From Boswellia sacra (Eukaryota; Streptophyta; Magnoliopsida; Sapindales; Burseraceae): 64,000 bases of DNA. The notes under the pieces are model-generated. The model saw only the letters and a program-made list of their open reading frames with translations. It did not search any database and was not told where the DNA came from. A program made the position numbers and the translations under genes. Below, piece after piece: positions 31,531 through 64,000 of the stretch (positions are counted from its first letter, which is position 1; each line of letters opens with the position of its first letter). Where the stretch lies: assembly GCA_013180625.2 (NCBI GenBank), contig SNVD02015055.1, positions 33,257-97,256 of the forward strand. The letters are read 5' to 3'.

Positions 31531-32400
31531 ATGGCATCTACAGTTAGAAAATATCTAAATTCTAAATCTAGAAAAACGTTCAAAGTAATTAGTTCAAGAG
31601 AAATAATGACAAAAATTACTAATATTAAACAAAGTTTAAATAAAAATACATTACCCAGCATTCCACCAAACAGTATATATGAAATAGGAACATTTGATTT
31701 TAAAACTGCCTATTCAATAAAAGAACATGAAAAAACTTTAACTTTACAAAATGAATTTGAAGAAATAAGATTACTAAGTCAATTAGCAATAGAAAATTAT
31801 AAACAAAAAGGGTTTAACTATATACATTTCAGACTAATACAAATAGCTATTAAGCCGTTATAAAAAATTGGAATAGATTCCCCAGTATTAATGTTATTAA
31901 GAGATAAAACATTACTAAAATTTCAAGATTCTTTATTAGGAGTAGTACAATCAAACTTATGTAATGGTGCTATATATTTTAATTGTGCTCCAAATTTTCA
32001 AGTTAGTTTGCACGATCTAACAATATTAGATACATTAGTACTAAATATTCATTTACCAGAATCAATTTTTACACAAAATAGGCACGGATATTTATTACTT
32101 TATAGAATATATTTCAAACAAACTAGTTCAGAGTTTAATCCAAGATGTAGATTACAAGATACTAGAGGAGAAACTACAATATTGACAGAAGAGAATACTC
32201 CAACATCAACTTATACTCCAAAATCATTAAAATGGAATGAAATCACTATACCAGAAGTATGGATAATAGATAATCCATTACCGCCTAGAAATATAGCTCA
32301 AAAAGAAATAGCACAAATTACTCAAAATCCAAAAGAGAAAATATTATTAAGATTTAATTCCTTAAGAATAGGAGAAACTTCATCAAGTTATTCTATATAA
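31531..32400 (+). pseudogene. Caulimovirid movement-protein-like ORF, with one stop codon
   Basis: Read in one frame from ATG 31531 to 32400 with a single in-frame TAA at 31861-31863. Its position directly after the leader ORF, and the segment with LTILDTLVLNIHLPE, fit the 30K movement-protein superfamily, but I recognise it by context more than by motif. Downstream viral sequence to about 32829 is frame-broken. The open frame 32625-32885 runs from viral sequence into the inverted leader, so its C-terminus is an artefact of the junction. Confidence 0.6.
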
Positions 32401-45400: not shown

Positions 45401-45506
45401 AGAAGCCGAAAATGATGAAAGTTTGATTTTGGCTATCCAAGAAGAATTGAACCAATTTGAGAGAAATCAAGTTTGGGAATTAGTCCCTAGACCCAAATAT
45501 GACTAA
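42456..45506 (+). pseudogene. Element 1 gag-pol remnant
   Basis: Gag homologous to element 2, but the start ATG reads GTG (42456) and frames change repeatedly. Visible are the gag landmark FNGSDYSYWKT, coiled-coil-rich middle, zinc knuckle CTYCGRKGHKVYSC (about 43682), integrase pieces ([36 protein letters not shown]) and the first part of RT, ending VWELVPRP. Directly after, the sequence jumps to the end of RNase H (CCCCTTAGTCAAGATA), showing a deletion of about 1.3-1.4 kb relative to element 2. Confidence 0.88.
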
Positions 45507-45819
45507 ACCCCTTAGTCAAGATATATTTTGCATAATAAGAAGAGAAGTAGTTATGTTGGATATGCCTTAATTTTTCTTTTATATGATAATCTTTAAATGG
45601 TAGCATATGTTAAGGGGGAGAGTATATTTAGGGAGAGTAATTAATTTGACTACATCTTTTTGACGATAACAAAAGGGGGAGAAATGGATGGTTTGGATGG
45701 TTTGCTTATATTCATAACAATTGCTTTCTTTTTGCTTATTGTTGATTTTATTTTCATTCTTGATTTTAGATTATATTTTAAAGCAATCAATAGTTTGTCA
45801 TCATAAAAAAGGGGGAGAT

Positions 45820-47561
45820 TGTTAGCCCTAAGGCTACATGATAATTTTGATGATAACAATACACATTGATTAATTGAGATTTACTAACATGTTTCTTTAT
45901 GTGCAAGAGTAAGATCATTGAAATAATTTTAAAATCAAGAAGAGGCTTATTAAAATGAAGTGTTGAAGCTAAGGAGAAGACTCCATGTTAAAGGCACCAA
46001 AGTTTAAGAAAAAGGATTGACTCAAGGAATGTGACACATGAGCAATGTTCAATCAATTGGTCATATATATCTCTACAAATATCCAAATGACGTGATTCTT
46101 AAGCCTTTGGAAAGCTTACTCAATTTATAACATTTCATATGTTTTAATGAAATTCAAATGTCAAGTGCAAGGTTGTCCAAATCATCATGCAATTTGAAAG
46201 ACAAATGGAAGTAGCTGACATGAGCACCGAATACTCCTTTGGACATATCTTGAGCTAGAAAAATCAAAATGACTTGATTCTTACGGCATTGGAAATATGA
46301 CTTAATGAAGAACATTTCATATGTTTTTGAAAAAATTCAAATTTCAAACAGAAGGCCGACATAATTGACATGCAATTCGGTGGACTGACACAAAGAAGAA
46401 AAATCAACTCACATGAGCACCGAATGGTTTTTTGGCTATATCTTAAGATAGAGATATCCAAATGCTTTGATTCTAAATGTTTTGGAAAGCTTATTCAAAT
46501 ATACAGATCTTTCATGTTTTGAAGAAATTCAAATTTCAAACGGAAGGCTGACAGAATTATCATTCAATTTGGTGGACTGACACAAGAAAGAAAAATCAAG
46601 TCACATGAGCACCGAATGGTGTTTTGGCCATATCTTGAGCTACAGATGTCCAAATGTCTTGATTCTTGATGCGTTAGAAAGCTTATTCAAACTTTCAAAT
46701 CTTTTATGTTTTGCATATTTTCAAATTTCAAACGGAACATTGACAAAAATGGCAGACAAGATTACGGTTTTTATGGTGGGCATAAAATTTGGAGATGGTG
46801 TCTTCACTTGATTAAGTTCATCTCATTTGCCTATAAAAGGAGCCATTCTCCCATGCATTCAAGAAGGGCAAGAGAAGCATTTTATCAAGCAAAAAGCAAG
46901 AGAAATATCAAGTCTAGAGAGCTTTTATATTATTTATCTACTCTTTGAAGAGAGTTATACTTTTGTTGTAAAATTATCTTTGTTCTTGTATTGTGGTGAG
47001 AGTGAGATATTATTGTAAAGGATAATAGTTATCCTTGAGAGAACTCTTGTTGTGTGTTAGCAAGAGTTGAAGGGAGTTGCCTTGGTGAGGTTGTTCATCA
47101 AGAAGAACTCTTGGTGTGGTGTTATCAAGAGTTGAAGGAAGTTGCCTTGGTGAGGTTGTTCATCAAGAAGAACTCTTGGTGTGGTGTTATCAAGAGTTGG
47201 AAGAAAAAGTCTTGGTGAGGTTGTTCATCAAGCAAGTTGTAAAGATTTCTACAACTTAGTGGAAAGCTTAGCTCGTGGAGCTAGGAGCCCGTGGACGTAG
47301 GCAAGGTTTGCCGAACCACGTAAATTGAGTTTGCAGTCTCTCTATCCCTTTCCTCTTTATATTTACTTGCACTTGTGATTGTTCATCATTATTATTCTTT
47401 TGATTGCATCTTTGATAAATTTTAATTTCATCTTCTTCACCGTTATTTTTAAAGAAAGAGTGAACTAATTTTGATCTTTCAAGAAAAGTTTTCTAAATCC
47501 GTTTTGATAAATAAAAACCCAATTCACCCCCCCCTCTTGGGTTGCCATACCTGGGTCAACA
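45820..47561 (+). repeat. Element 1 3' LTR
   Basis: 1742 bases. The 165-base shortfall against the 5' LTR is explained by about two and a half fewer 65-base units (array at 47038-47238, three units). Confidence 0.92.
47038..47238 (+). repeat. 65-base tandem array in element 1 3' LTR
   Basis: Three units of the same 65-base repeat found in the other LTRs; the first is slightly diverged (CTTGTTGTGTGTTAGCAAG). Confidence 0.9.
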
Positions 47562-47790
47562 GCCATATGCTCATTTTCAGGCCATCACATATCAAAGCTT
47601 TAAGCACAATTTCGAACAAATCACATATCAAAGCCGGAGGCACCATTCCATGCCATTCACGTATCAAACCATAGGCACTCCATGCCATTCACATATCAAA
47701 ATCATATTTACAATTCTGTACCATAACACACCAAAGCTATAGGCACAATTTTATGTCATAACACATCAAAGATATAGGCATAATTCCATG
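47562..47790. repeat. Degenerate minisatellite of about 35-37 bases
   Basis: Six or so imperfect units containing CACATATCAAAGC and AGGCACAATT or close variants, with CCATGCCATT between some. No coding sequence. It lies between the element 1 LTR and the CACTA end, and may be a piece of a larger unidentified repeat. Confidence 0.65.
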
Positions 47791-48604
47791 CACTACAAGA
47801 AAAAAGCAAATATTTGACGGTTATTGCACGTCATATATGTCACCGTTAAATATGATAATAGTTGACCGTTAGTCAAACAGTCAAATATTCACTATAGCAT
47901 ATTTGACTCTTACAAAATAGTCAAGTTTATATACCTTTGAAATTCAAAATTTTGGCATTATTTGACATTTTATGGAAGAAATATTTGACATAAACCGTCA
48001 AATATGACAAAATTAACGGTCAAAATTTTTAAATTATTGTTAATAATACTTGACAGTAACCGTCAAATATTCAGTCAAAATTTTTCAACCGTCAAGTATG
48101 TGACAGTAACCGTCAAATATTATAAACTTTTTTTACCTATTTGATTGCTTTTAACCATCAAGTATGTGAGTTATTTGACGATTACTGTCACATACTTACC
48201 TTTAACCGTCAAGTATGTGAGTTATTTCACGGTTACTGTCACATACTTGATGGTTACTGTAATATACTTACTTTTAACCGTCAAGTATGTGACAATAACC
48301 GTCAATTATAAAGTAGCATTTTTAATACTTGACCGTTTAGATACTGCGAAGTATGACAAAATTTTTTGCTCATATTTGACTCTTTTTGATAGACAATATT
48401 TTCGGCTCATATTTGACAGTCAAATATTTGACTGTTTATTATACTTGTCCGTTTGATTACTGTCAAGTATGACAAAACTCATATGTGGTTGTTTATTTAT
48501 ATTTGTTACTGTCAAATATTACAGGATTTTTAACTCATATTTGACTGTTTATTGATACTGTCAAATATGATATATTCGTTCGGGTCATATTTGACGGTTT
48601 ATTA
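47791..48604. mobile_element. CACTA (En/Spm) transposon end with subterminal repeats
   Basis: Starts CACTACAAGAAAAAAGC, the canonical plant CACTA terminus, followed by about 800 bases packed with ACCGTCAAATAT / TTTGACGGTTACTGTCA motifs in both orientations, as in transposase-binding subterminal regions. The element is cut by Sirevirus-like element 2 at 48604. No opposite terminus (ending TTGTAGTG) was found in the window, so it is truncated or its other end is lost. Confidence 0.85.
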
Positions 48605-50508
48605 TGTTAGCCCTAAGGCTACATGATAATTTTGATGATAACAATACACATTGATTCATTGTGATTTACTAACATGTTTATTTATGTGCAAGAGTAATAT
48701 CATTGAAATAATTGTAAAATCAAGAAGAGGCTTATTAAAATGAAGTGTTGAAGCTAAGGAGAAGACTACATGTTAAAGGCACCAAAGTTTAAGAACAAGG
48801 ATTGACTCAAGGAATGTGACACATGAGCAATGTTCAATCAATTGGTCATATATATCTCTACAAATATCCAAATGATGTGATTCTTGAGCCTTTGGAAAGC
48901 TTACTCAATTTATAACATTTCATATGTTTTAATGAAATTCAAATTTCAAGTGCAAGGTTGTCCAAATCATCATGCAAGTTGAAAGACAAATGGAAGCAGC
49001 TGACATGAGCACTGAATACTCCTTTGGACATATCTTGAGCTAGAAAAATCAAAATGACTTGATTCTTGTGGCATTGGAAAGATGACTTAATGAGGAACAT
49101 TTCATATGTTTTGAAAAAATTCAAATTTCAAACAAAAGGCTGGACATAATTGACATGCAATTCGGTGGACTGACACAGAGAAGAAAAATCAACTCACATG
49201 AGCACCAATGGTGTTTTGGCCATATCTTAAGATAGAGATATCCAAATGCTTTGATTCTTAATGTTTTGGAAAGATTATTCAAATATTCAGATCTTTCATG
49301 TTTTGAAGAAATTCAAATTTCAAACGGAAGGCTGACAGAATTATCATTCAATTTGGTGGACTGACACAAGAAAGAAAAATCAAGTCACATGAGCACCGAA
49401 TAGTGTTTTGGCCATATCTTGAGTTACAGATATCTAAATGACTTGATTATTAATGCGTTGGAAAGCTTATTCAAACCTGCAAATCTTTTATGTTTTTCAG
49501 ATTTTTAAATTTCAAACGAAACATTGACAAAATTGGTAGACAAAATTACGGTTTTTATGGTGGGCAGAAAATTTGGAGTTGGTGTCTTCACTTGTTCAAG
49601 TTCATCTCATTTGCCTATAAAAGGAGCCCTTCTCCCATGCATTCAAAGACAAGAAGAGCAAGAGAAGCATCTATCAAGCAAAAAAAAAAAAAGAGAAATA
49701 TCAAGTCTAGAGAGCTTTTATATTCTTTATCTACTCTTTGAAGATAGTTTTACTTTTGTTGTAAAAATTTTCTTTGTTCTTGTATTGTGGTGAGAGTGAG
49801 ATCTTCTTGTAAAGGATAAAAGTTATCATTGAGAGAACTCTTTCCTTGGTGAGGTTTTTCATCAAGAAGAACTCTTGGTGTGGTGTTATCAAGAGTTGAA
49901 GAAAGTTGCCTTGGTGAGGTTGTTCATCAAGAAGAACTCTTGGTGTGGTGTTATCAAGGGTTGAAGGAAGTTGCCTTGGTGATGTTGTTCATCAAGAAGA
50001 ACTCTTGGTGTGGTGTTATCAAGGGTTGAAGAAAGTTGCCTTGGTGAGGTTGTTCATCAAGAAGAACTCTTGGTGTGGTGTTATCAAGAGTTGAAGGAAG
50101 TTGCCTTGGTGAGGTTTTTCATCAAGAAGAACTCTTGGCGTGGTGTTATCAAGGGTTGAAGGAAAAAGTCTTGGTGAGGTTGTTCATCAAGCAAGTTGTA
50201 AAGATTTCTACAACTTAGTGAAAAGCTTAGCTCGTGGAGCTAGGAGCCCGTGGACGTAGGCAAGGTTTGCCGAACCACGTAAATTGAGTTTGCACTCTCT
50301 CTATCCCTATCTCTTTACATTAACTTGCACTTGTGATTGTTCTTAATTTCTATTCTCTTGATTGCATTCTATTTTCATCTTCTTCACCTTTATTCTCAAA
50401 GAAAGAGTTAAATAATTTTGATCTTTCAAGAAAAGTTTTCTAAATCCGTTTTTATAAATAAAAACCCAATTCACCCCCCCCTCTTGGGTTGCCATACCTG
50501 GGTCAACA
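48605..50508 (+). repeat. Element 2 5' LTR
   Basis: Same architecture as the other three LTRs: four units of about 190 bases, CCTATAAAAGGAGCC TATA-like box (about 49614), then five 65-base units (49846-50192). Confidence 0.94.
49846..50192 (+). repeat. 65-base tandem array in element 2 5' LTR
   Basis: Five units with only scattered substitutions. Confidence 0.92.
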
Positions 50509-50563
50509 AGTGGTATCAGAGCAAGGTTGCTCAATTTTTTAAATCTTAATCGATTTTTGAGCT

Positions 50564-51962
50564 ATGACAACTTTTAATTCAACTTCATATGTTGAGGGAC
50601 TTTCAATCTCTAGACCTCCATTTTTTAATGGAAGTGATTACTCTTATTGGAAAACTAGAATGAGTATTTTCTTGAAATCTTTTGATTATGATTTGTGGTC
50701 TATTGTTTGGAAGGACCTTTTGTTCCTACCAAAATTGAAAATGGGGAATGCATGCTTAAAGAACCTAAAGAGTTTAGTGAAGAAGATAAAAAGAAATTGA
50801 GTTTGAATGCTAAAGCTATGAATGTGTTGTATTGTGCTCTAGATAGAAATGAGTTTAATAGAATATCTACTTGTTCTACTGCACAAGAAATATGGCACAC
50901 ACTTGAAGTAACTCATGAAGGAACTAGTCAAGTTAAAGAATCCAAAATTAGTATGCTAGTTCACAGTTATGAGCTTTTTAAGATGAAATCGGATGAATCA
51001 ATTTCTGAAATGTTTACTAGATTTACGGATATTATTAATAGTTTGAAATCTCTTGGTAAATCTAATTCTAATGTTGAAATGGTGAGAAAGATTCTTAGGT
51101 GTCTACCAAAATCTTGGGAGCCAAAGGTGACGGCAATTCAAGAAGCAAAGGACCTCACCAAACTCCCATTAGAAGAACTTATGGGTTCTCTCATTACTCA
51201 TGAAATCATCTTGAAGGAGAATGAAGAAGAAGATTGCGAAGTGGCAAACATATGCTTCATGGCTTTAAGTGAAGATGAGGTAAGTATTCTAAATTATGAT
51301 ACTAAGCTTTCATACGATGAATTACTTGAAGCATTTCAAAATTTGAATGTGCAAGTTGATAAACAAAATTCAAAAATCAATGCTTTAAAAAAGAAGTCAA
51401 AAATCATGTTATCTTAATTAGAAGAGTTGGTAGAAATAAATGAAGCTTTAGAAAATGAAAATGAAATTTTAAAGCAAAAAGATTTTGAAAGTTTGGAAAT
51501 TCAAATACATTTTTTAAAAACAGAAAATGAGATTTTAAAACAAAAGGATTTTGATAAATTAGAGAAAGAAAATGTTATTTTGAAAAAGGAAAATAATGAC
51601 TAAAGAAATATTGTTGATAGTTTTACAAAAAGCCCAAAAAATTTGAATTCTATGTTACAAAACCAAAGGTGTGTTTTTGATAAAAGAGGGTTAGGATATA
51701 AAAGTCATAAAAATCAAAAGTATTTTAAAAACTATTTGGTTCATGCATCTTCTAGGAATAATCCTAATCATTCATGTAATTATTGTGGAAGAAAAGGACA
51801 CAAAATGCATTCTTGTTACATTAAGAGAAATCCTAATTTGAAACAAATATGGATTTCAAAAAGGACCATAACTAACCCCCAAGGACCCAAGAACTTTTGG
51901 GTACCAAAAAGTTACTCCTTGAATGTTGATTGTAGAGACAAAGGAGTGTCAAACACAAGTGG
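50564..51962 (+). pseudogene. Element 2 gag, frame-broken
   Basis: Starts at ATG 50564 (TTFNSTSYVEGLSISRPP). A frame change near 50700-50760 leads into the long frame to 51417, where a TAA interrupts; another stop is at about 51601. The C-terminal part has the zinc knuckle CNYCGRKGHKMHSC, which binds nucleic acid in gag proteins. Gag forms the particle that packages element RNA; this copy cannot make a full protein. Confidence 0.88.
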
Positions 51963-54900
51963 TACTTAGATAGTGGATGCTCAAGGCATATGACCAGAGA
52001 TGCCTCCAAGTTCTCAAGATTAATCATGAAGAAAGGAGGATATGTGACCTTCGGTGATAATGCCAAAGGAAGGGTAATCGAACATAGTGATATCGGTAAC
52101 CCTTCTTCACTTATTATTGAAAATATTTTGCTTGTGAATGGTTTGAAACATGATTTGATTAGCATTAATTAATTGTGTGATAAGGGATATTTTGTTACTT
52201 TTGAGCATAATAGATGTGTGATTAAGGATGTTAGTAACAATAAGACATTATTTGTCGGTAATAGATGTGGTAATATTTATACAATTGATATTGATGTTAA
52301 TGATCATGTAGAAAGTGTTTTATTGTTAATCATGATGCTTGATCATGGCATGGAAGGCTAGGTCATGCTAGCATGACACCATTTCAAAAATTTCTAAAAA
52401 TGATTTAGTTGATGGTCTTCCAAAAATAAAATTTGAAAAGGATAAGATTTGTGATGCTTGTCAATTTGGAAAACAAGTGAGAACTTCTTTTAAACAAAAC
52501 AAATTTATTTCAACAAGTAAACCTTTACAATTACTTCATTTGGATTTATTTGGACCATCAAGAACTCAAAGCCTTGGTGGAAAGTATTATGTTTTTTGTT
52601 ATTGTGGATGATTATTCAAGATTCACTTGGGTGTTATTCTTGAAAACTAAAAATGAGGCCACACAAGCTTTTTCAAAATTTGCAAAAAAAGTCCAAAATC
52701 AAAAAGGGTATTCTATTGTGTCCATTAGGAGTGATCATGGTGGTGAAGTAGACAATGTTGCATTTAAAAATCTTTGTGATGAAAATGGTTTTGAACATAA
52801 TTTTTCCTCACCTAGAACTCCACAACAAAATGGTGTTGTTGAGAGGAAAAATCGGACTATCCAAGAAATAGCTAGGACCATGTTACTTGAAAATAATTTG
52901 CCAAAATATTTTTGGGCCAAAGCCGTTAATACCGCATGCTTTATAATCAATAGAGTCCATATTAGAGCTTTAATAAAGAAAACTTCTTATGAACTTTGGA
53001 AAGGAAGAAAACCCAACATTGCATTTTTTAAAGTTTTTGGATGTAAATGTTTTATTTTAAACACAAAGGATAACCTTGGAAAATTTGATGCAAAAGCCGA
53101 TGTTGGAATTTTTGTTGGCTACTCCAACCATAGTAAAGCATATAGATTTTTTAACAAAAAGACTCTTACTATTGAAGAATCTATGCATGTTGAATTTGAT
53201 GAAACTAATGTTATTTCTTCAAAGAATTTAGATGATGATATTGTTGAGGTAGAAAGGCAAATCAAGGAATCAAGGCTTGATGAAAAGAGTCAAGATGAAT
53301 TACAACTTCAACAAGAAAAGCTTGAGGAAGTAATTGATTCTTCCCAAGAATTACCAAAGGAATGGAGGTATGCAAAAGCTCACCCTAAAGATCTCATTAT
53401 TGGTGAACCATCACAAGGTATGAAAACTAGATCTTCTTTTAAGAACTTTCGTAATCATTTTGCTTTTGTCTCTCATTTTGAACCAAAATCTTTTAAAGAA
53501 GCCGAAAATGACGAAAGTTGGATTTTGGCTATGCAAGAAGAATTGAATCAATTTGAGAAGAATCAAGTTTGGGAATTAGTCCCTAGACCTAAAAATCATT
53601 CTATTATAGGCACTAAATGGATTTTTAGAAATAAAGTAGATGAAAATGGCACCATTATTAGAAACAAAGCAAGACTTGTTGCTCAAGGATACAATCAAGA
53701 AGAAGGTATTGATTATGAGGAAACCTTTGCACCGGTTGCTAGATTAGAATCAATTAGAATGTTGTGTGCATTTGCATGTTATAAAATTTTTACATTATAT
53801 CAAATGGATGTCAAAAGTGCATTTTTAATGGTTACATTATGGAGGAAGTATATGTAGAGCAACCTCTTGGTTTTCAAAATCATGATTTTCCAAACCATGT
53901 TTTCAAACTCAAAAAGGCACTTTTTGGCTTGAAACAAGCACCAAGAGCATGGTATGATAGATTAAGCAAATTTCTCATTGATAATGGTTTCAAAATGAAA
54001 AAAGTTGATACTACTCTTTTTGTTAAAACAAAAAATGATGATTTATTAATTGTTCAAATCCATGTTGATGATATTATATTTGGTGCTACTAATGTCTCTA
54101 TGTGTGTGGAATTTTCTAAGTGCATGCAACAAGAATTTGAAATGAGCTTAATGGGAGAATTAAATTTCTTCCTTGGACTTCAAATCAAGCAATCAATAGA
54201 TGGGATCTTCATTAATCAAGCTAAATACACAAGAGATCTTCTCAAGAAGTTTGGCATGGATAATTCAAGGACATATAACACACCTATGGTACATTAACCA
54301 AGCTTGACAAAGATGAGAAAGGAAAAGATGTTGAGGTAACAAAATATCGAGGTATGATTGGCTCTCTTTTGTATGTAACTGCTAGTAGACCTGATATTAT
54401 GTTTAGTGTGTGTATGTGTGCTAGATTTCAATCTTGTCCAAAGGAATCTCACCTTAAGGCTGTCAAAAGGATCTTTAGATATCTTCTTGGAACCATAAAT
54501 CTAGGTCTTTGGTATCCTAAGTGTGATAATTTTGATCTAATTAGTTATTCTGATTCGGACTTTGCTGGAAGTCTTCTTGATAGAAAGAGCACTAGTGGCT
54601 CTTGCCATTGTCTAGGACATGCATTAGTATCATGGTTTAGTAGAAAACAAAATTCTGTTGCATTATCAACCACGGAAGCTGAGTATATTGTAGTAGGAAG
54701 TTGTTGTGCACAAGCTCTTTGGATGAAACAAATTTTAAAAGACTATGGTGTGGTATTTGATCATATTCCTATCAAATGTGACAATACAAGTGCCATCAAC
54801 ATTTCAAAAAATCCCATACAACACTTTAGGACTAAGCATATAGAGATTAGACATCATTTTATTAGAGATCATGTGCAAAAAAGTAATATTTCTTTAGAAT

Positions 54901-55004
54901 TTGTTCCCACCGATAAACAATTAGCCGATATATTTACTAAACCCCTTAGTCAAGATAGATTTTGCATAATTAGAAGAGAATTAGGCATGTTGGATATGTC
55001 TTAA
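51963..55004 (+). pseudogene. Element 2 pol: protease, integrase, RT, RNase H
   Basis: Reading order with breaks: protease region around 51970, integrase zinc region near 52350, integrase core and RT start (52550-53857; landmarks [41 protein letters not shown]), RT continuation (53839-54297; FGLKQAPRAWYD) and RNase H (54354-55004; YSDSDFAGSLLDRKSTSGS, ending LGMLDMS). The normally YVDD catalytic box reads HVDDIIFGA here, a further sign of inactivity. At least three frame changes separate these pieces. Confidence 0.9.
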
Positions 55005-55245
55005 TTTTGCTTTAATATTATAATCTTTGAATGGTAGCATATGTTAAGGGGGAGAATATATTTAGGGGGAGTAGTTAATTTGATTACATTTTTTTGATGA
55101 TAACAAAAAGGGGAGAAATAGTTGGATTGCTTATATTCATAACAAGTGCCATTCTTTTTGCTTATTGTTGATTTTATTTTCATTCTTGATTTTAGATTAT
55201 ATTTTAAAACAATCAATGGTTTGTCATCATCAAAAAGGGGGAGAT

Positions 55246-57097
55246 TGTTAGCCCTAAGGCTACATTATAATTTTGATGATAACAATACACATTGATTAAT
55301 TGAGATTTACTAACATATTTATTTATGTGCAAGAGTAAGATCATTGAAATAATTGTAAAATCAAGAAGAGGCTTATTAAAATGAAGTGTTGAAGCTAAGG
55401 AGAAGACTACATGTTAAAGGTACCAAAGTTTAAGAACAAGGATTGACTCAAGGAATGTGATACATAAATAATGTTCAATCAATTAGTCATATATATCTCT
55501 ACAAATATCCAAATGATGTGATATTTGAACCTTTAGAAAGCTTACTCAATTTATAACATTTCATATGTTTTAATGAAATTCAAATTTCAAGTGCAAGGTT
55601 GTCCAAATCATCATGCAAGTTGAAAGACAAATGGAAGTAGCTGACATGAGCACCGAATACTCCTTTAGACATATCTTGAGCTAGAAAAATCAAAATGACT
55701 TGCTTCTTATGGAAATGGAAATATAACTTAATGAGGAACATTTCATATGTTTCGAAGAAATTCAAATTTCAAATGGAAGGCTGACATAATTGACATGCAA
55801 TTCGGTGGACTGACACAGAGAAGAAAAATCAACTCATATGAGCACCAAATGGTATTTTGGCCATATCTTAAGATAGAGATATCCAAATGCTTTGATTCTT
55901 AATTTTTTAGAAAGCTTATTCAAATATGCAGATCTTTTATGTTTTGAAGAAATTCAAATTTCAAACGGAAGGCTGACAGAATTATCATTCAATTTGGTGG
56001 ACTGACACAAGAAAGAAAAATCAAGTCACATGAGCACCGAATAGTGTTTTGGCCATATCTTGAGTTACAGATATCCAAATGACTTGATTTTCAAATTTCA
56101 AACGGAACATTGACAAAAATGGTAGACAAAATTACGGTTTTTATGGTGGACAAAAAATTTGGAGTTGGTGTCTTCACTTGTTCAAGTTCATCTCATTTGC
56201 CTATAAAAGGAGCCCTTCTCCCATGCATTTGGTAAGACAAGAAGAGCAAGAGAAGTATCTATCAAGCAAAAAACAAGAGAAATATCAAGTCTAGAGAGCT
56301 TTTATATTCTTTATCTACTCTTTGAAGAGAGTTGTACTTTTGTTTTAAAAATTTACTTTGTTCTTGTATTATGGTGAGAGTAAGATCTTCTTGTAAAGGA
56401 TAAAAGTTATCCTTGAGAGAACTCTTTCCTTGGTGAGTTTGTTCATCAATAAGAACTCTTGGTGTGGTGTTATCAAGAGTTGAAGGAAGTTTCCTTGGTG
56501 AGGTTGTTCATTAAGAAGAACTCTTGGTGTGGTGTTATCAAGAGTTGAAGGAAGTTGCCTTGGTGAGGTTGTTCATCAAGAAGAACTCTTGGTGTGGTGT
56601 TATCAAGAGTTAAAGGAAGTTGCCTTGGTGAGGTTGTTCGTCAAGAAGAACTCTTGGTGTAGTGTTATCAAGAGTTGAAGGAAGTTGCCTTGGTGAGGTT
56701 GTTCATCAAGAAGAACTCTTGGTGTGGTGTTATCAAGGGTTGAACGAAAAAGTCTTGGTGAGGTTGTTCATCAAGCAAGTTGTAAAGATTTCTACAACTT
56801 AGTGGAAATCTTAGCTCATGGAGCTAGGAGCCCGTGGACGTAGGCAAGGTTTGCCGAACCACGTAAATTGAGTTTGCACTCTCTCTATCCCTTTCCTCTT
56901 TATATTTACTTGTACTTGTAATTGTTCTTTATTTGCCATTCTCTTGATTGCATTCTATTTTCATCTTCTTCACCTTTGTTCTCAAAGAAAGATTTAAATA
57001 ATTTTGATCTTTCAAGAAAAGTTTTCTAAATCCGTTTTTATAAATAAAAACCCAATTTACCCCCCCCCCCTCTTGGGTTGCCATACCTGGGTCAACA
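55246..57097 (+). repeat. Element 2 3' LTR
   Basis: 1852 bases; shorter than the 5' LTR through a deletion of about 55 bases in the last 190-base unit (around 56090). Five 65-base units are present. Confidence 0.94.
56429..56780 (+). repeat. 65-base tandem array in element 2 3' LTR
   Basis: Five units, matching the 5' LTR in number. Confidence 0.92.
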
Positions 57098-57102
57098 TAT
57101 TA

Positions 57103-57475: not shown

Positions 57476-59005
57476 TGACACATCCGAAAAAGGATTGTCT
57501 CCCAAGTATAGGAGTGTCGAAGTAATAAACCTGGTGAGTCCGAGGTCGATCCACGAGGAAGGGGATTTTAGCGTTACAAATTATAAGTTAAGCAAATATG
57601 ATATGAATAATTGAAAGAAATGATAAGATAATCTCAACAAATATGTAAAGATGGTAGGTGATATTACCGACCATTCAAATATAAAACAAAAGATAAAAGG
57701 AGGTAAAACCATCCATGGAAATAGGTGGTATAACCAACCATAGTAAATTAAAGAATAATTTCATAAGGTGGTAGAACCTACCATAGTAAATAAAATAAAA
57801 AGTTCATAAACAATAGAATAATTAAAATATAAGAGGAACTAACACAATAATAATGAAAGCTAAGGTTAGGGGATCCGCCCTTGATATTTCGAATAAGGAT
57901 AATTAGCCCATTTTAGTTATATGATTTATATTTGTTTCATTACCAACATTTATACCACTTCTTGTAAATGGGTTCAAGCATCCAATGTGCCAATCATTAT
58001 ATGTCTACAACAAATCAAGGTTCCTCACTAGATTCGTGTCGGTAAAGAAGAACCATACATCATCTAGAAAGGATCCAAGCATTTGATGTGCCAAGGATTG
58101 TCGACAATGGAGCAAGACCTCCACTTTACGAGTGGTGTCAAGATTGATTAAGAAATTAATATAAATCATATTGAATAAACATTATAAGATTAAGATTATT
58201 AAGCACATATAAAGGGTTAGAGAATCCTTAATCTCATATCAAGGGTTTCACCCTTTCACCTTAGCAAAAGAGAAATTAGAAGAACATTATAATAGAAAGA
58301 AAATAAAATGCAAGGAAAAGGAAATTCATTAATAACATAAACACACAAAACACAATACAAGATCCTAGCCAAAGCCAAAATGTTCCAGCCAAGGCCAAGA
58401 TGCCCTAATGGGTCACAAGGCACCTCTATTTATAGATACATCCAGGGGCAAACTTGTCAAATTACAAGGGCATAATTGTCAAATATTAGTTGTAAATATC
58501 TTTGACAATTGGGATCATTAGGCACCGACTTTGACCATCAATTTTGACATCGAAATGTTGTGAATTTTAATCACATGTCTTCATGAAAGTTGTAGATATT
58601 TCTCTCAGCTTTCTAGAACATATTGATTTGCACAATTTGGATACGTATTTTGAGAGATACGGTCCAAATACTGAGGCCTGGTCAGACTGGGCCGCGACTA
58701 TAGATGGGTTCACTTCAAGCCCAATTTTGGTCCACTAAGAGCCCGAATTTGATGATTTTTGTGAAATGCAATCTTGTAGACAATTGAATCAGCTTTCCAA
58801 AACATTAAGAATTGCACCATTCTAATCTATAAATAGAGAGTTATGACCATTTTACCGAACCTGTAACAAAACCCAAATTAAGAGAAATTAATTCCAAAGA
58901 TGCAAATGCTACAAATATGCTTAAGTTGAGGAATTTAATGACACTATTAATGCAATATGATGAACTAAACTCTTATTAAACATGCATATTTAAGTGTTCA
59001 TCACA
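57476..59005 (-). repeat. Probable 3' LTR of the gypsy element
   Basis: The inner edge is well supported: on the minus strand GCTAGTTGGGGGG is directly followed by TGTGATGAACAC, the usual polypurine-tract/LTR junction of this group. The outer edge at 57476 (TGACACATCC on plus) is a guess from the TG...CA rule. The other LTR is not in the window to compare with. Confidence 0.5.
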
Positions 59006-59019
59006 CCCCCCAACTAGCT
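59006..59019 (-). other. Polypurine tract of the gypsy element
   Basis: GCTAGTTGGGGGG on the minus strand, adjacent to the inferred LTR start TGTGATGAAC. Confidence 0.7.
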
Positions 59020-60273
59020 TATTGCTAGTCCCTAGCAATTAAAGCGTTATTATTTAGAAGTGATTTATAGAATTTTACATCCAAGGTGGTCATTATTGCA
59101 CTCTCCTTGATTTTATCCAAATAAACAAACTCTCAACCAATTATTATTATTATTATTTTTTTATGACTCATGTACCCTTTAGTCAAGATATCAATAAACC
59201 TCCTGTTTGTGCTCAGTCAACACATGACTATGGGGCTTATTAGAAAGAAGCCATATCGGTTCTAATATTTGTTAAGGGTAACAACCTTAGGTAATGGGAT
59301 ATTTCATTCATTTTATACATTTTTCTTTTTTTTTTTTGAAAGAATGCATCTTAACCCATGTAGCGAGCCTTAGGCTAATGACTCACAGACCAGTTGGCCT
59401 TAGGGCATTAGGTGTTAAGACACACCTACGAGCTTAACGACTCGTGCCAATACTTATTTTTGCTTAGAAACTTGTGGATAGTGCAATGTTCAATCCCATT
59501 AAGCTGTCTCCTTAATCCATGTAGCGAGCTTTGGGCCAATAGCTCCCAAACCAGTTGGTCTTAGGGTATTAGGTGTTGAGGCACCCCTCGGGCTTAATTG
59601 CTCGAATTAAGGAGGCTACAAGACAAAACTTATCCACCGTTGCTTTCTCCCTTTTTTTTCTTTTTTTTTTCTTTCATTTTCTTTTTTCATTTTTTTACTT
59701 TCCCCCTTCTTTTGTGTATCAAACAAAACAAAAGAACCCAAATATTACAACATTTCATTTTGCCATCCACAATCATGCATCAAGGTATGTGTGTGTGTGT
59801 GAAGAAAGGTTCATGAATACTTGCTTAATGAGTATATAAGCACACAATTTTTTTTATTTAAATGATAAGGTCGTGAGAGTTCATAGATTTCCTTCAAGTG
59901 GATTCAAAGTTATAAGCACCAATAGATTAAGAATCTCTGATTTCCAATAATTTCAATCAATCATCAAGATGGTAAGAACATTAATATTCGAATATATTAG
60001 TTTAGCGTGTACACTAAGATTTTTCAGATTTCTAATAATAAATATGCACTACCTTATGTGTTCTTTAGTCACGGTCTCCTGGTTGACTCAAGTACGCTGG
60101 CCAACCCAACTGGCTCTCGCCCCTAATTGCAAATTTCACTGCTGTATCTCCAGATTATGGCTTCCTCAAGAGCGATTGAACTCCTTACACCGCACTCTGA
60201 ATCGAATTACTAACTCGCTTTTTTTTTTTTTGCAAGAAAAAATAAAATTTCAACACACACTTATGTCTACTAT
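59020..60273 (-). other. Gypsy 3' spacer
   Basis: Non-coding spacer between the conserved block and the 3' LTR. It has an approximately 50-base repeated phrase (AATCCATGTAGCGAGC... with ACCAGTTGG and TTAGGGYATTAGGTGTT), seen at about 59354-59420 and 59514-59580, and a pyrimidine-rich run near 59650-59710. The plus-strand frames here look like chance. Confidence 0.5.
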
Positions 60274-60310
60274 CCTTCCCCCCCAGCCAAATGAAACATT
60301 GTCCTCAATG
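60274..60310 (-). other. Conserved 3' block of Athila/Tat elements
   Basis: On the minus strand CATTGAGGACAATGTTTCAT is followed by TTGGCTGGGGGGGAAGGATA. Blocks of this form are recurrent just after the pol region in this gypsy group (from memory). Here it lies downstream of the LOG frame rather than next to integrase. Confidence 0.6.
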
Positions 60311-60432
60311 TTTAAATGTAGAGAGATAAAGTATAGGAGACATTACCTGAAGCTTATGTTATTCAAGAGAGATGACCTGAAAGACTCATAAAATAACATG
60401 CTAAAAATAAAATAAAATAAAAGACAAAAAAA

Positions 60433-61083
60433 TTACAAACAGAGATTCAGATCCAATTTGCACTTTTTGTTTTGCCTTCCTGCCCAATTAATTTGAGTAC
60501 TAACTGGATCAGGTTCATACTCAACTTCTTGTAATTTGTCAAGTAACTCACCAGCAGAAGTGGCAGAAACAAGGATCTTTCTCGCCCAATGTGGGATAAA
60601 ATTTTGTTTTACAGCTGCATCAACAAAACTTATTAAAGGATCAAAGAAATTGTTAACATTCAACAAACCTATGGGTTTTTGATGGAGATTCAGGTGGGCC
60701 CAAGAGGCAATTTGAAAAATTTCTTCAAGAGTGCCAAAGCCACCTGGTAAAGCAATAAAGGCATCTGAATTGATGGGCATATGTGCCATGCGTTCATGCA
60801 TAGAGGAGACCTGTAACTCCTTCCCAACCGTTTTTCCAACAATACTTTCTACAGCCAAAGCTTTAGGAATAACTCCTAAAACTTGAGTACCTCCTACATG
60901 TGCAGCTGTTGACAAACAACCCATTAACCCGAGGCTACCTCCCCCATAAACCACATGAATCTTTCTTTCAGCCAGTAGCCTACCAAGATAATTCGCTACT
61001 TCTACGAACTCTTCACTTGTACCTGGTCGAGATCCACAGAATACACATATCCTTTGGATTCGACGTTTTGAAGTTCCCTCCAT
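60433..61083 (-). CDS. LOG: LOG-family cytokinin riboside 5'-monophosphate phosphoribohydrolase, intronless
   Basis: 216 residues, intact. LOG enzymes release active free-base cytokinin from its nucleotide in one step in cytosol/nucleus. Visible motifs: RICVFCGSRPG (residues 11-21), YGGGSLGLMG (46-55), VIPKAL (71-76), MHER (95-98, with the conserved catalytic Arg98) and PGGFGTLEE (113-121, with the catalytic Glu). The usual RKAEM after the arginine is replaced by RMAHM. The tail after about residue 186 is unlike typical LOGs and ends KLDLNLCL, an LxLxL (EAR-like) pattern. The frame has no introns, whereas plant LOG genes usually have several, so it looks retroposed; no poly(A) tail remains. 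It sits inside the gypsy element, same strand, between integrase and the 3' conserved block. It could be an expressed retrogene or a neutral passenger; the open frame argues for youth or selection. Confidence 0.88.
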   Translation of the reverse strand: MEGTSKRRIQRICVFCGSRPGTSEEFVEVANYLGRLLAERKIHVVYGGGSLGLMGCLSTAAHVGGTQVLGVIPKALAVESIVGKTVGKELQVSSMHERMAHMPINSDAFIALPGGFGTLEEIFQIASWAHLNLHQKPIGLLNVNNFFDPLISFVDAAVKQNFIPHWARKILVSATSAGELLDKLQEVEYEPDPVSTQINWAGRQNKKCKLDLNLCL

Positions 61084-61130
61084 GTCTATGTAACTCTTTA
61101 ACTATGTGTGAAGAAGAGAACAAGACATGT

Positions 61131-61140
61131 GGTATTTATG
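61131..61140 (-). promoter_or_regulatory. TATA-like box upstream of the LOG frame
   Basis: CATAAATACC on the minus strand, about 50 bases before the LOG ATG. This spacing would leave a very short leader. Possible but unproven. Confidence 0.3.
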
Positions 61141-61398
61141 GAGTGCAAAAAGGTATGCTAATGATGATATCTATCTAGGTAGCTCGATTGTTTGTTGAAA
61201 AAGTTGACAATAATGCCCAAAAATTCAAAAGAGGATGAAATAAGACACCATAAGTCAAACAAAAGATACAAATTCAAAAATGACAGCAATGAGGTATTAA
61301 AATTCAAAACTGATGGCACGCATGCATATGTACAGGTAGTTGTGACTGTGGCTCACATCTTCCTCTGGTTTTACGTCCAGAAACGGCTAAAACACCTT

Positions 61399-61700
61399 CT
61401 ATGAGTTGGGGATATGCTTCCCATCCAGTTTTCTTATAAACTGGCAAACAGGGTCGTTTTGAGTCAGATTCCCAAGACTATAGCGTTCCTGCTCATCTCG
61501 GAATTGTGTCCACAAATTAAAAATTTCACGCTGCACAAGTCCACAAGAATGCGTCTCAAGAGTCGTTAGGATATCATCCAAAGACTCCTTACTCAGTCCA
61601 TTCTTGATGAACTGTAGTTTATCCCCTCGATTGTTAGACAAATATCCCAAGGAGCGGCAACGCTGGTTACAAGTCCATCTTGCAGATCTGGGACAAATTT
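61399..61700 (-). CDS. Unrecognised open frame upstream of LOG
   Basis: An open stretch on the minus strand ends in TAG at 61399, about 315 bases before the LOG start. It includes CNQRCRSLGYLSNNRGDKLQ and later CGLVQREIFNLWTQFRDEQE. There is no clear ATG; the frame is open leftward past 61680. The composition is protein-like (balanced, few repeats), but I recognise no domain. It could be part of another captured host sequence, an extra ORF of this gypsy family, or a relic. Confidence 0.35.
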
Positions 61701-62110
61701 GTAACCTTTTCGCTCTTCGCTTTTTTTTTTTCTGGCCTAGAGCTTTTTTCCCAAACCTGGCAATATCGGGAAATGTCTAAAAAAAGAGGGAAAATTTTTT
61801 TAGATTATCTGAAAAATCACAAGAGAATCGAACCTTGGCTTCAATTAACCATCTTAAATCAGCAGGAATACCCTTACGCATCAACAACCTTAGTCTTTCT
61901 GCACGAGCTTTTTAAATTTTAAGCAAATCATTTTAAGGAAGAGAGGGAAAATGTTTGTGCAATTTAGAGAGAATGGTATCCATGTGAAGAAAATGAGAGA
62001 GAAGAAAAGAAAGTGGATGCAAGGTGAGCAACAGTTTTTAGGGAACTGAAAAACTGACTTTAATAGTCACGGAGTACCGTATCCGCCACTTGACCGGGAA
62101 AAATCAATCC
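61701..62110 (-). other. Post-integrase spacer of the gypsy element
   Basis: Between the integrase stop and the unknown open frame. It is largely non-coding with short coding-like fragments (for example a frame containing LLMRKGIPADLRWLIEAK) broken by stops. May be degenerate captured sequence. Confidence 0.4.
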
Positions 62111-63076: not shown

Positions 63077-63922
63077 TTACGTTTTGCAAAATACATGTGC
63101 ATCTTTAAATAAGGTGGGCCAATAAAATCCACATTGCAAGATTTTAGCAGCTGTTTTTCTAGATAAAAAATGTCCTCCACATGCTTCGGAATGACAAAAG
63201 TTAATGACACTACTTACCTCATTGTCGGGTATACATCTTCTTATTATTTGATCTGGACAATATTTGAAAAGATACGGATCATCCCAGTAAAAATTTTTCA
63301 CCTCGGTTAAAAATTTTCTTTTGTCTTGAGTATTCCAATGAGGTGGCATTTTCCCTGTCGCAAGAAAATTTACAATGTTAGCAAACCAAGGTACAGTAGC
63401 AACAGAAAATAAAAATTCATCAGGAAAGGAATCATTGATAGGTGAAGTTTCAATTAATGTCTCTGTCGTTAGTCTTGAAAGATGATCAGCAACGACATTT
63501 TCGGCTCCTGTCTTATCCTTTATTGTGATGTTGAATTCTTGGAGCAATAAGATCCACCGTATCAATCTAGGTTTTGCATCCTGTTTAGTCATTAAATATC
63601 TCACAGCTGCATGGTCAGTGTAAACAATTGTTGGAGAGACAATTAAATAAGATCGAAATTTGTCCAATGCAAATACTACTGCAAGTAGTTCTTTCTCAGT
63701 TGTTGTGTAATTCATTTGTGCATCATTTAAAGTCCTACTTGCATAGTATATTACATAAGGCTTACCTTCTTTTCTTTGTCCTAAGACAGCACCAACGGAA
63801 TAGTCACTTGCATCACACATCAATTCAAAAGGCAAGGACCAATCAGGAGATTGCATAATTGGAGCAGTTGTTAAAAGCCCAATTAATGTATCAAAGGCAT
63901 TGACATTCTTGAGTCCATTCAA
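63077..63922 (-). pseudogene. Gypsy RNase H and integrase zinc-binding region
   Basis: Open for 281 codons. RNase H landmarks are [50 protein letters not shown] and [11 protein letters not shown]. Then comes the H2C2 zinc region ([26 protein letters not shown]). Right of 63922 the RT thumb continues to the window edge in a broken frame. Confidence 0.9.
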
Positions 63923-64000
63923 AGGAAGTATCTTTTATTAAGAGGTTACAAAGAGGTTTAGATATAGCACTAAAATTTCCTATGAACCTCCTATAAAATC

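What the first reader, a model, noticed from the sequence alone, without database searches (positions are those of the whole stretch)
60274..62110. Intact intronless LOG (cytokinin-activating) gene inside an Athila/Tat gypsy element
The LOG frame (60433-61083) is complete and lacks introns. It lies on the same strand as the gypsy pol gene, between the end of integrase (62111) and the conserved CATTGAGGACAATG block and 3' LTR that normally follow integrase. The simplest reading is that the element picked up a spliced LOG transcript, or that a LOG retrocopy landed in it. A hormone-activation gene moved by an LTR element would spread cytokinin-related copies through the genome.
Basis: partly seen in the sequence, partly recalled or inferred. 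Interest (0 to 1): 0.88.

Follow-up and report, generated by a model that had tools for sequence, protein, structure and literature searches.

The report
Retrotransposon carrying hormone and viral genes
This stretch is part of a plant jumping gene, present in dozens of copies, that carries next to its integration enzyme a broken relative of a plant-virus protein gene and an unbroken gene for a likely cytokinin-activating enzyme, a pair that would help the element by pushing its host cells to divide.

Summary
A complete, intron-free 216-codon LOG frame (61083-60433, minus strand) lies between integrase and the 3' LTR of a likely Athila-type Ty3/gypsy element, in sense with pol. It is no local accident: the same segment sits at 40 or more places in this genome (91-96% identical), and a second subfamily adds at least 150 one-exon LOG frames. 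Base changes private to one copy look neutral, changes shared by copies do not (N/S 125/43 against 21/30, p 2e-5), so LOG is under selection while the element spreads. LOG in such elements is in print for Citrus and Populus (PMC9289625). Beyond the texts I saw: (1) a second accessory gene between integrase and LOG, broken in this copy, whose relatives match the carlavirus-type cysteine-rich protein (CRP); (2) a related element, L001, with CRP but no LOG; (3) a basic plus LxLxL (EAR-type) tail on most element LOGs (131 of 148 retrieved), absent from 15 of 15 host LOGs sampled. Best reading: a lineage that took a viral-type gene and a host LOG and uses both on its host cell. Enzyme activity, TOPLESS binding and silencing suppression are untested.

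The parts
63077..63934 (-). RNase H and N-terminal (zinc-binding) part of integrase of the element's pol
   Evidence: PF17917 9.7e-37, PF17919, PF17921 1.6e-06; 71% identical to L001 over 203 aa
62111..62689 (-). C-terminal part of integrase; pol of this copy is broken (two frame changes and four stop codons over the stretch aligned to L001 integrase)
   Evidence: no Pfam hit for this piece alone, assigned by 77% identity to the L001 integrase end
61399..61983 (-). remnant of a carlavirus-type cysteine-rich / nucleic-acid-binding protein (CRP) gene; three in-frame stops and a change at a conserved cysteine column; unbroken copies exist
   Evidence: 299 homologues; 13 of 14 members of A2 match PF05515 and PF01623, all but the window piece; stops counted; a 182-aa frame in 15 of 39 other copies
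61337..61377 (-). conserved non-coding block right after the CRP frame
   Evidence: alignment with L001, coordinates
60351..61326 (-). segment present here and absent from the LOG-less relative L001 (about 975 bp against about 114 bp); holds LOG with its own flanks
   Evidence: blastn blocks and alignments of the two flanks
61131..61141 (-). TATA-like sequence upstream of the LOG start (predicted only)
   Evidence: sequence inspection
60433..61083 (-). intact intron-free LOG (cytokinin riboside 5'-monophosphate phosphoribohydrolase-like) frame, 216 aa
   Evidence: selection
60436..60468 (-). C-terminal tail of LOG: basic run plus LxLxL (EAR-type) motif
   Evidence: 131 of 148 full-length element-type LOGs have LxLxL in the last 10 residues, 0 of 15 host LOGs; 38 of 40 copies in this genome
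60297..60310 (-). CATTGAGGACAATG block, also in L001 and in 8 of 8 window-type loci checked (the window's own included)
59004..59014 (-). predicted polypurine tract before the 3' LTR
   Evidence: sequence inspection
57476..59003 (-). 3' LTR, 1528 bp
   Evidence: matches in six of six other copies; LTR pairs 94.5, 97.5 and 98.9% identical in three of six; 5-bp flanking repeat in one

Best explanation
The LOG frame is a selected accessory gene of a likely Athila-type LTR retrotransposon lineage, lying after integrase and a viral-type CRP gene and before the 3' LTR, and it would let the element raise active cytokinin in the cells where it is transcribed. Steps shown: LOG sits inside the element in sense with pol, and the segment recurs at 40 or more places of this genome; it keeps the residues and fold of type-I LOGs; inherited changes in it are strongly depleted of amino-acid changes; a related element lacks it; element-type LOGs are one clade; most carry a basic plus LxLxL tail that the sampled host LOGs lack; CRP lies next to LOG in 19 of 20 loci checked. 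Steps inferred: an ancestral element took a spliced host LOG transcript and placed it between CRP and the CATTGAGGACAATG block; the tail was gained, or lost in the branch with the Xanthoceras copies, later; the protein makes cytokinin bases; the tail recruits TOPLESS-type co-repressors in the nucleus; CRP suppresses RNA silencing and drives growth genes as some carlavirus CRPs do. Together they would weaken silencing and keep host cells dividing, which helps a retroelement reach the germ line.
For: Copies: 40 places at 91-96%; 150 further one-exon LOG frames of another subfamily, 145 without a stop, at other places. Neighbours: CRP in 8 of 8 and motif in 8 of 8 window-type loci (the window's own included), CRP in 11 of 12 and motif in 10 of 12 loci of the other subfamily. 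Selection: singletons N/S 125/43 (neutral expectation about 2.9), changes in three or more copies 21/30, Fisher p 1.9e-5; window against nine frames of the other subfamily dN 0.23-0.25, dS 1.12-1.29. Enzyme: PF03641; best structure match Arabidopsis At2g37210, TM 0.97 by target (model pLDDT 87); R98 in 165 of 171 and E121 in 167 of 171 element-type LOGs. Clade 90.8/97, stem 0.89. Tail: 131 of 148, against 2% in shuffled tails and 0 of 15 host LOGs; entropy 0.91 bits against 1.91 in the linker; 29 of 29 unbroken copies here; disordered in the model. LOG-less relative. Linkage in other species: equal contig lengths in three cases where 0.06 are expected by chance and consecutive Xanthoceras tags ACOSQ2_032186 (LOG) and ACOSQ2_032187 (CRP). 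Viral CRPs: silencing suppressors, and CVB p12 a transcription factor causing hyperplasia (PMC12172455, passages).
Against: No enzyme, silencing or TOPLESS assay exists here, and no expression data were seen. CRP and pol of this copy are broken, so this copy is not autonomous. 17 of 148 full-length LOGs lack LxLxL, nine of them in the branch that holds the Xanthoceras copies. 30 of 196 LOG sequences lack a perfect PGGxGTxxE; R98 is changed in 3 of 40 copies here. LOG misses NCBI's equivalog cut-off (111.7 of 300 bits). Integrase was found in only 5 of 8 window-type loci, and in none of the 12 loci of the other subfamily, within about 1.5 kb of LOG. A 5' LTR was found in only 3 of 6 copies examined. 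For most members of the clade in other species the genomic context was not seen. L001 cannot tell gain from loss of LOG. The places scored are those most like the query, which favours unbroken copies.
Confidence: 0.67

Rival explanations
1. Local retrocopy: a host LOG mRNA was reverse-transcribed and landed by chance in this one element copy, without any role for the element.
For: No intron; a LOG-less relative, L001, exists.
Against: The same segment sits at 40 places of this genome; nearest relatives form a long-branched clade; LOG/YgdH in gypsy elements of Citrus and Populus is in print; no poly(A) tract in the 190 bp printed around and after the frame's end.
Confidence: 0.01
2. Passenger: LOG was captured long ago and is carried along without benefit; its conservation only reflects recent copying.
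For: 11 of 40 copies here have a stop or frameshift in LOG; private changes are neutral.
Against: Changes shared by three or more copies are strongly depleted of amino-acid changes (p 1.9e-5); dN/dS about 0.2 between subfamilies; R98 and E121 in 35 of 35 non-redundant sequences.
Confidence: 0.04
3. Not a cytokinin device: the LOG body is a carrier for the basic plus LxLxL tail, and the protein acts as a nuclear TOPLESS-binding regulator or decoy, or on another nucleotide.
For: Tail conservation, tail disordered in the model, equivalog cut-off missed.
Against: Active-site residues are kept, and the branch with the Xanthoceras copies lacks the LxLxL tail yet has many LOG copies.
Confidence: 0.18
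4. Host use: this particular LOG has been kept by the plant as a new gene after the element died.
For: LOG intact while pol and CRP are broken; a TATA-like sequence lies upstream.
Against: 29 of 40 copies have an unbroken LOG, so an unbroken one is not special; the imbalance of lesions in this copy alone gives P about 0.06; LOG deviates at 2 of 60 conserved columns, controls median 1 of 60, and the surviving CRP part at 1 of 36, controls median 1 of 36.
Confidence: 0.04

Closest known systems
LOG/YgdH-bearing Ty3/gypsy elements of Citrus and Populus (PMC9289625, citing Steinbauerova et al. 2011)
   Same: A LOG-family (YgdH) domain in plant gypsy elements; the 2011 abstract, which I recall and could not open, speaks of two Athila-like elements similar to LOGL4.
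   Different: The text that I read describes no linked CRP gene, no EAR-type tail, no selection test and no LOG-less relative, and names only Citrus and Populus.
Carlavirus / allexivirus / mandarivirus cysteine-rich proteins (CRP, NaBP)
   Same: Relatives of the frame match PF01623 and PF05515 above the curated cut-offs; basic run plus zinc-finger-like cysteines.
   Different: 182 aa, carried in sense by an LTR retrotransposon, not by an RNA virus; broken in this window, and the window piece itself reaches neither Pfam family.
Endogenized betaflexivirus-like replicase in cucumber (PMC3136472, passages)
   Same: A piece of a betaflexivirus-like gene in a plant genome, with a retrotransposon-like sequence near it.
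   Different: Replicase, not CRP; in the passages seen it is not described as a gene of a retrotransposon family.
Orchid gypsy elements with an ALKBH5-like m6A demethylase (PMC9289625)
   Same: A host-type enzyme gene kept as an accessory gene by a gypsy family.
   Different: Different enzyme; in that screen found only in Phalaenopsis; no viral-type partner gene in what I read.
Antisense accessory ORFs of Retand-type elements (PMC11963269, parts 1 and 2 of 5 read)
   Same: Long pol-to-3'LTR region carrying extra ORFs.
   Different: There antisense and mostly TRP28; here sense, CRP plus LOG.
Plant host LOG enzymes (At2g37210, At5g11950, LOG7-named proteins)
   Same: Fold, active-site residues, length.
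   Different: 46-48% identity to the six host LOGs in A1; the basic plus LxLxL tail is absent from 15 of 15 host LOGs sampled; host genes have introns (recalled).

Membership tests
Type-I LOG (cytokinin phosphoribohydrolase) | Lysine_decarbox/LOG domain and PGGxGTxxE motif with the Arg and Glu known as catalytic (recalled) | tested here: met
   PF03641 4.2e-37; P113-E121 motif and R98 present
Type-I LOG (cytokinin phosphoribohydrolase) | LOG fold | tested here: met
   2a33_B E 5.6e-24, TMt 0.97
Type-I LOG (cytokinin phosphoribohydrolase) | NCBI equivalog model cut-off (NF058542) | tested here: not met
   111.7 bits against 300; the subfamily model TIGR00730 is met, 166.6 against 96.35. So: LOG family by sequence and fold; the equivalog name is not claimed
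Type-I LOG (cytokinin phosphoribohydrolase) | Releases cytokinin base from riboside monophosphate | not testable with these tools
   needs an enzyme assay
Ty3/gypsy LTR retrotransposon | paired LTRs with target-site duplication around RNase H-integrase | tested here: met
   in other copies: LTR pairs in 3 of 6 examined, 5-bp repeat in 1 of the 3; the window's own 5' LTR is off its contig
Athila (OTA, non-chromovirus Ty3/gypsy) | no second (archaeal-type) RNase H, which marks Tat | tested here: inconclusive
   Pfam shows RNase H followed directly by integrase; Tat marker per PMC6317226, where its position varies; RT not in the window
Athila (OTA, non-chromovirus Ty3/gypsy) | long pol-3'LTR region with extra ORFs | tested here: met
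   about 3.1 kb between integrase and the LTR, with CRP and LOG frames
Athila (OTA, non-chromovirus Ty3/gypsy) | lineage by RT/INT tree, PBS, gag | not tested
   outside the window; not built from other copies
Carlavirus-type CRP / Viral_NABP | PF01623 and PF05515 in relatives of the frame | tested here: met
   13 of 14 members of A2 match both at E up to 0.01; the four relatives given to lie above both cut-offs. One A2 member also matches SHQ1 at 0.0024, taken as chance
Carlavirus-type CRP / Viral_NABP | PF01623 or PF05515 in the window's own piece | tested here: not met
   no family; the window gene is therefore filed as a remnant of a gene whose relatives are CRP-type
Carlavirus-type CRP / Viral_NABP | basic run plus CxxC zinc-finger-like cysteines | tested here: met
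   108 of 120 relatives carry CxxCx4Cx3C, 109 of 120 a loose basic pattern; altered in the window copy
Carlavirus-type CRP / Viral_NABP | silencing suppression, transcription-factor activity | not testable with these tools
   known only for viral members
EAR-motif repressor | LxLxL motif | tested here: met
   KKCKLDLNLCL at the LOG C-terminus
EAR-motif repressor | binds TOPLESS / represses transcription | not testable with these tools
   needs an interaction test

The most novel reading that the evidence does not exclude
A retrotransposon lineage of flowering plants has assembled a two-gene host-manipulation cassette: a silencing-suppressing, growth-inducing regulator taken from an RNA virus and a host cytokinin-activating enzyme refitted with a TOPLESS-recruiting tail. 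With it the element behaves like a gall-maker or virus living inside the genome, making the cells it sits in divide and switching off their defences so that its copies reach the germ line.
Probability: 0.25. Interest if true: 0.92.

Novelty: new variant of a known kind. Interest (0 to 1): 0.75.

Why it matters
Accessory genes of plant LTR retrotransposons are mostly of unknown function. Here two of them have readable functions, both pointing at the host cell: a viral-type silencing suppressor/growth regulator and a cytokinin-activating enzyme whose sequence is shown to be under selection while the element spreads. If confirmed, transposons would manipulate plant hormones as gall-forming pathogens do, and the question why plant elements keep extra ORFs becomes testable. 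One genome holds at least 190 such LOG frames, so database proteins named LOG or LOGL10 in trees may often be transposon genes. Both frames fall below the 250-codon limit used for extra ORFs in a standard survey (PMC6317226, passages), which may be why the pair was passed over.

Tried and rejected
Rejected: an intron in the CRP frame. I first read the gap in that frame as an intron; relatives run through with no gap, so this copy is broken. Rejected: a local retrocopy and a passenger (see rivals). Led nowhere: three scans of viral contigs, with LOG, A1 and A2, gave no related locus; the CRP structure model (A2, first row P0204) is too poor to search (pLDDT 53.8); paper search gave nothing useful. 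The intron-bearing parent LOG was not found: a host LOG (P0145) as query returned only one-exon full-length frames among the 150 scored of 13253 candidates. Conservation of LOG against CRP within this copy gave no clear difference.

Paper searches for a carlavirus-type gene in gypsy elements: 7 of 7 listed; 0 found; 10 of 10; 25 of 100; for LOG in retrotransposons: 20 of 319; 1; 3. They gave PMC9289625 for LOG and none for CRP. Supplementary files and most subscription papers were not searched.

Dropped rows: 196 LOG sequences (195 retrieved plus the window) and two typed Arabidopsis segments; 10 outside 185-260 aa were left out before alignment; the tree kept 52 (35 element-type, 17 host) after removing element-type sequences 80% or more identical to one kept. 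The 17 host sequences were chosen by me from names and sequence before the tree: 12 named plants (asterids and monocots), three unnamed, two Arabidopsis; no rosid host LOG is among the 15 used for the tail count. 102 of 120 CRP sequences (140-200 aa) entered the column test, 52 non-redundant. Bases seen in exactly two copies were left out of the test.

The genome search answered for the first time, so I added, lowered the local-retrocopy, passenger and host-use rivals, and raised the main reading from 0.60 to 0.67, the third rival from 0.15 to 0.18 and interest from 0.70 to 0.75.
Full report
What is there. The window end holds the 3' half of a Ty3/gypsy element on the minus strand. In the element's direction: RNase H and the start of integrase (63934-63077; PF17917 9.7e-37, PF17921 1.6e-06), the end of integrase (62689-62111), a broken accessory frame (61983-61399), the LOG frame (61083-60433), CATTGAGGACAATG (60310-60297), a PPT-like run (59014-59004) and the 3' LTR (59003-57476). 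The contig ends at the window end, so the 5' half of this copy is not available.

LTR ends. In six other copies of the same segment I fetched the stretches where LTRs were expected. A 3' LTR was found in 6 of 6 (in two pieces in two of them), a 5' LTR in 3 of 6. The pairs are 94.5, 97.5 and 98.9% identical and the elements about 13.2, 11.2 and 11.6 kb long (lengths worked out by hand from its coordinates). One of the three has a perfect 5-bp repeat outside both LTRs, one has none and one is unclear.

LOG. The frame is complete and has no intron. It matches PF03641 at 4.2e-37 and solved plant LOGs (2a33, E 1.7e-60). The AlphaFold model (pLDDT 87) matches 2a33_B with TM 0.97 by target. The motif PGGFGTLEE and R98 are present. 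It stays below NCBI's equivalog cut-off.

Copies in this genome (638.6 Mb, 7431 contigs). The segment 60274-62110 matches 40 places, the window included, at 91-96% identity (the window itself 100%); 3362 candidates passed the first look and only 40 were scored. A host LOG used as query returned 150 more full-length one-exon LOG frames at other places, 145 without a stop, of 13253 candidates. The 12 of them fetched belong to another subfamily: 66-68% identical to the window LOG, and the nine whose 216-aa frame was printed end in KRR-type basic runs plus LxLxL. So at least 190 LOG loci are present. Scored places are the best matches, which favours unbroken frames. CRP was detected in 8 of 8 and the motif in 8 of 8 window-type loci checked (the window's own among them), integrase in 5 of 8; in the other subfamily CRP in 11 of 12, the motif in 10 of 12, integrase in 0 of 12 within flanks of about 1.5 kb.

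Selection. Of 40 window-type LOG copies, 29 have no stop or frameshift; LxLxL stands in 29 of these 29 and in 38 of 40; R98 in 37 and E121 in 39 of 40. Single-base changes seen in one copy only have N/S 125/43, as expected without selection (about 2.9 at a transition weight of 2, 2.5 at 4); changes shared by three or more copies have 21/30; Fisher p 1.9e-5. So copies decay freely once inserted, but the lineages that went on transposing kept the protein. CRP shows the same trend (97/33 against 21/21, p 0.004, 37 copies, frame taken from the window's broken copy and therefore rough). Between the window LOG and nine frames of the other subfamily dN is 0.23-0.25 and dS 1.12-1.29, a ratio of about 0.2. 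A 182-aa CRP frame was found in 15 of 39 other copies.

Relatives elsewhere. The 120 best database hits are not ordinary host LOGs: 42 are Reevesia pubescens genes on 18 numbered chromosome labels (my count); others come from Diplodiscus, Pterospermum (one cluster of 327 sequences), Xanthoceras, Melia, Populus and unnamed metagenomes. A second search from a Xanthoceras relative also reached host LOGs of Asteraceae, Solanum, Dioscorea and orchids, several named LOG7. In an IQ-TREE of 52 sequences, 35 element-type LOGs form one clade (90.8/97) with a stem of 0.89 among plant LOGs. Many inner nodes are weak, the host sister is not settled and no rosid host LOG but Arabidopsis was in the sample.

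The tail. Of 148 element-type LOGs of at least 210 aa, 131 have LxLxL in their last ten residues; shuffled tails give 2%, and 0 of 15 host LOGs have it. Of the 17 without it, six are Xanthoceras genes, three are unnamed sequences on the same branch, five have one change in the motif, and three end otherwise. In 35 non-redundant sequences mean column entropy is 1.04 bits in the body, 1.91 in the linker, 0.91 in the tail. The names EAR motif and TOPLESS are from general knowledge.

The second gene. The frame between integrase and LOG found 299 homologues; 119 of the 120 listed carry a precomputed PF01623 and many also PF05515 (my count). Run here, 13 of 14 members of A2 match both families, best 3.9e-07 and 1.1e-08; the window piece matches neither. 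108 of 120 have CxxCx4Cx3C. Named plants include Rhamnella, Populus, Xanthoceras, Acer, Parasponia and Orobanche. In this copy the frame has three in-frame stops and a change at a conserved cysteine column. PMC12172455 (passages, part of the abstract among them) says that viral CRPs suppress RNA silencing and that chrysanthemum virus B p12 acts as a transcription factor inducing hyperplasia.

Linkage elsewhere and the empty site. CRP and LOG hits share contig length and source in three cases (8723, 2128, 4511 bp); 0.06 are expected under a rough log-uniform null. Xanthoceras ACOSQ2_032186 (LOG) and ACOSQ2_032187 (CRP) have consecutive tags. L001, a 3330-bp contig binned in a bacterial MAG but plainly plant-element DNA, has integrase (77% identity at its end), CRP and the motif, but about 114 bp where the window has about 975 bp with LOG. 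Whether L001 lost LOG or never had it is open. CRP was seen in Orobanche and Rhamnella, which gave no LOG row in the capped lists; this only hints that CRP is the older partner.

State of this copy. The stretch aligned to L001 integrase has two frame changes and four stops, the CRP frame three stops, LOG none; at that rate 2.9 lesions are expected in LOG, P of none 0.06. LOG deviates at 2 of 60 conserved columns (controls median 1 of 60), the surviving CRP part at 1 of 36 (controls median 1 of 36). Between window and L001, NG86 dN/dS is about 0.09 for two pol blocks and 0.32 for CRP (dS in pol near saturation).

Prior work. PMC9289625 (section 12 in full, other passages by search) found YgdH/LOG domains in Citrus and Populus gypsy consensus sequences and cites Steinbauerova et al. 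2011, which I could not open. 'Carla', 'viral nucleic' and 'cysteine-rich' do not occur in its main text. PMC6317226 (passages) counted extra ORFs only from 250 codons, so both frames would be missed. PMC7264820 (first of three parts, and passages) notes, for antisense aORFs, a lack of similarity to viruses. PMC11963269: parts 1 and 2 of 5. PMC3136472: passages. Searches for a CRP in gypsy elements found none.

How it may work (inferred). Transcribed with the element or from its own promoter, LOG would release cytokinin bases in that cell; the basic tail would take it to the nucleus and LxLxL would recruit co-repressors; CRP, in unbroken copies, would blunt silencing and induce growth genes. 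A retroelement profits from dividing, meristem-like cells and from weak silencing. Each step is testable as listed.

Noticed in passing
window 45000-57100: Remnants of copia-type elements with LTR-like repeats near 45.7-47.5, 48.5-50.5 and 55.2-57.1 kb that hold internal units of about 65 and 192 bp; copia-type gag and pol pieces at 50695-53857.
   Followed up: partly
window 31891-32400 (+): Frame matching the viral movement protein family PF01107 (1.9e-07), suggesting an endogenous caulimovirid remnant; the RT piece at 29844-30377 (-) may belong with it.
   Followed up: no
L001 1799-2347 against window 61399-61776: Synonymous divergence of CRP (dS about 0.56) is much lower than that of the two pol blocks (about 1.6 and 2.0) between the same two elements, and the non-coding block after CRP is conserved too: an extra constraint on the CRP region, or exchange between elements.
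   Followed up: no
L001 (DAIEQH010000041.1): Plant retrotransposon contig binned in a Candidatus Nomurabacteria MAG: contamination of a public bacterial genome record.
   Followed up: partly
L006, L007, L009: Three of eight window-type loci show no integrase match within about 1.5 kb of LOG although CRP, LOG and the motif are there: possibly a subgroup that lacks integrase.
   Followed up: no
proteins P0052, P0075, P0111: Populus database proteins named LOGL10 fall in the element-type clade, so LOG family counts in trees may include transposon genes.
   Followed up: no
window 59350-59588: Two direct copies of about 80-90 bp (83% identical), 161 bp apart, between the CATTGAGGACAATG block and the LTR.
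   Followed up: no
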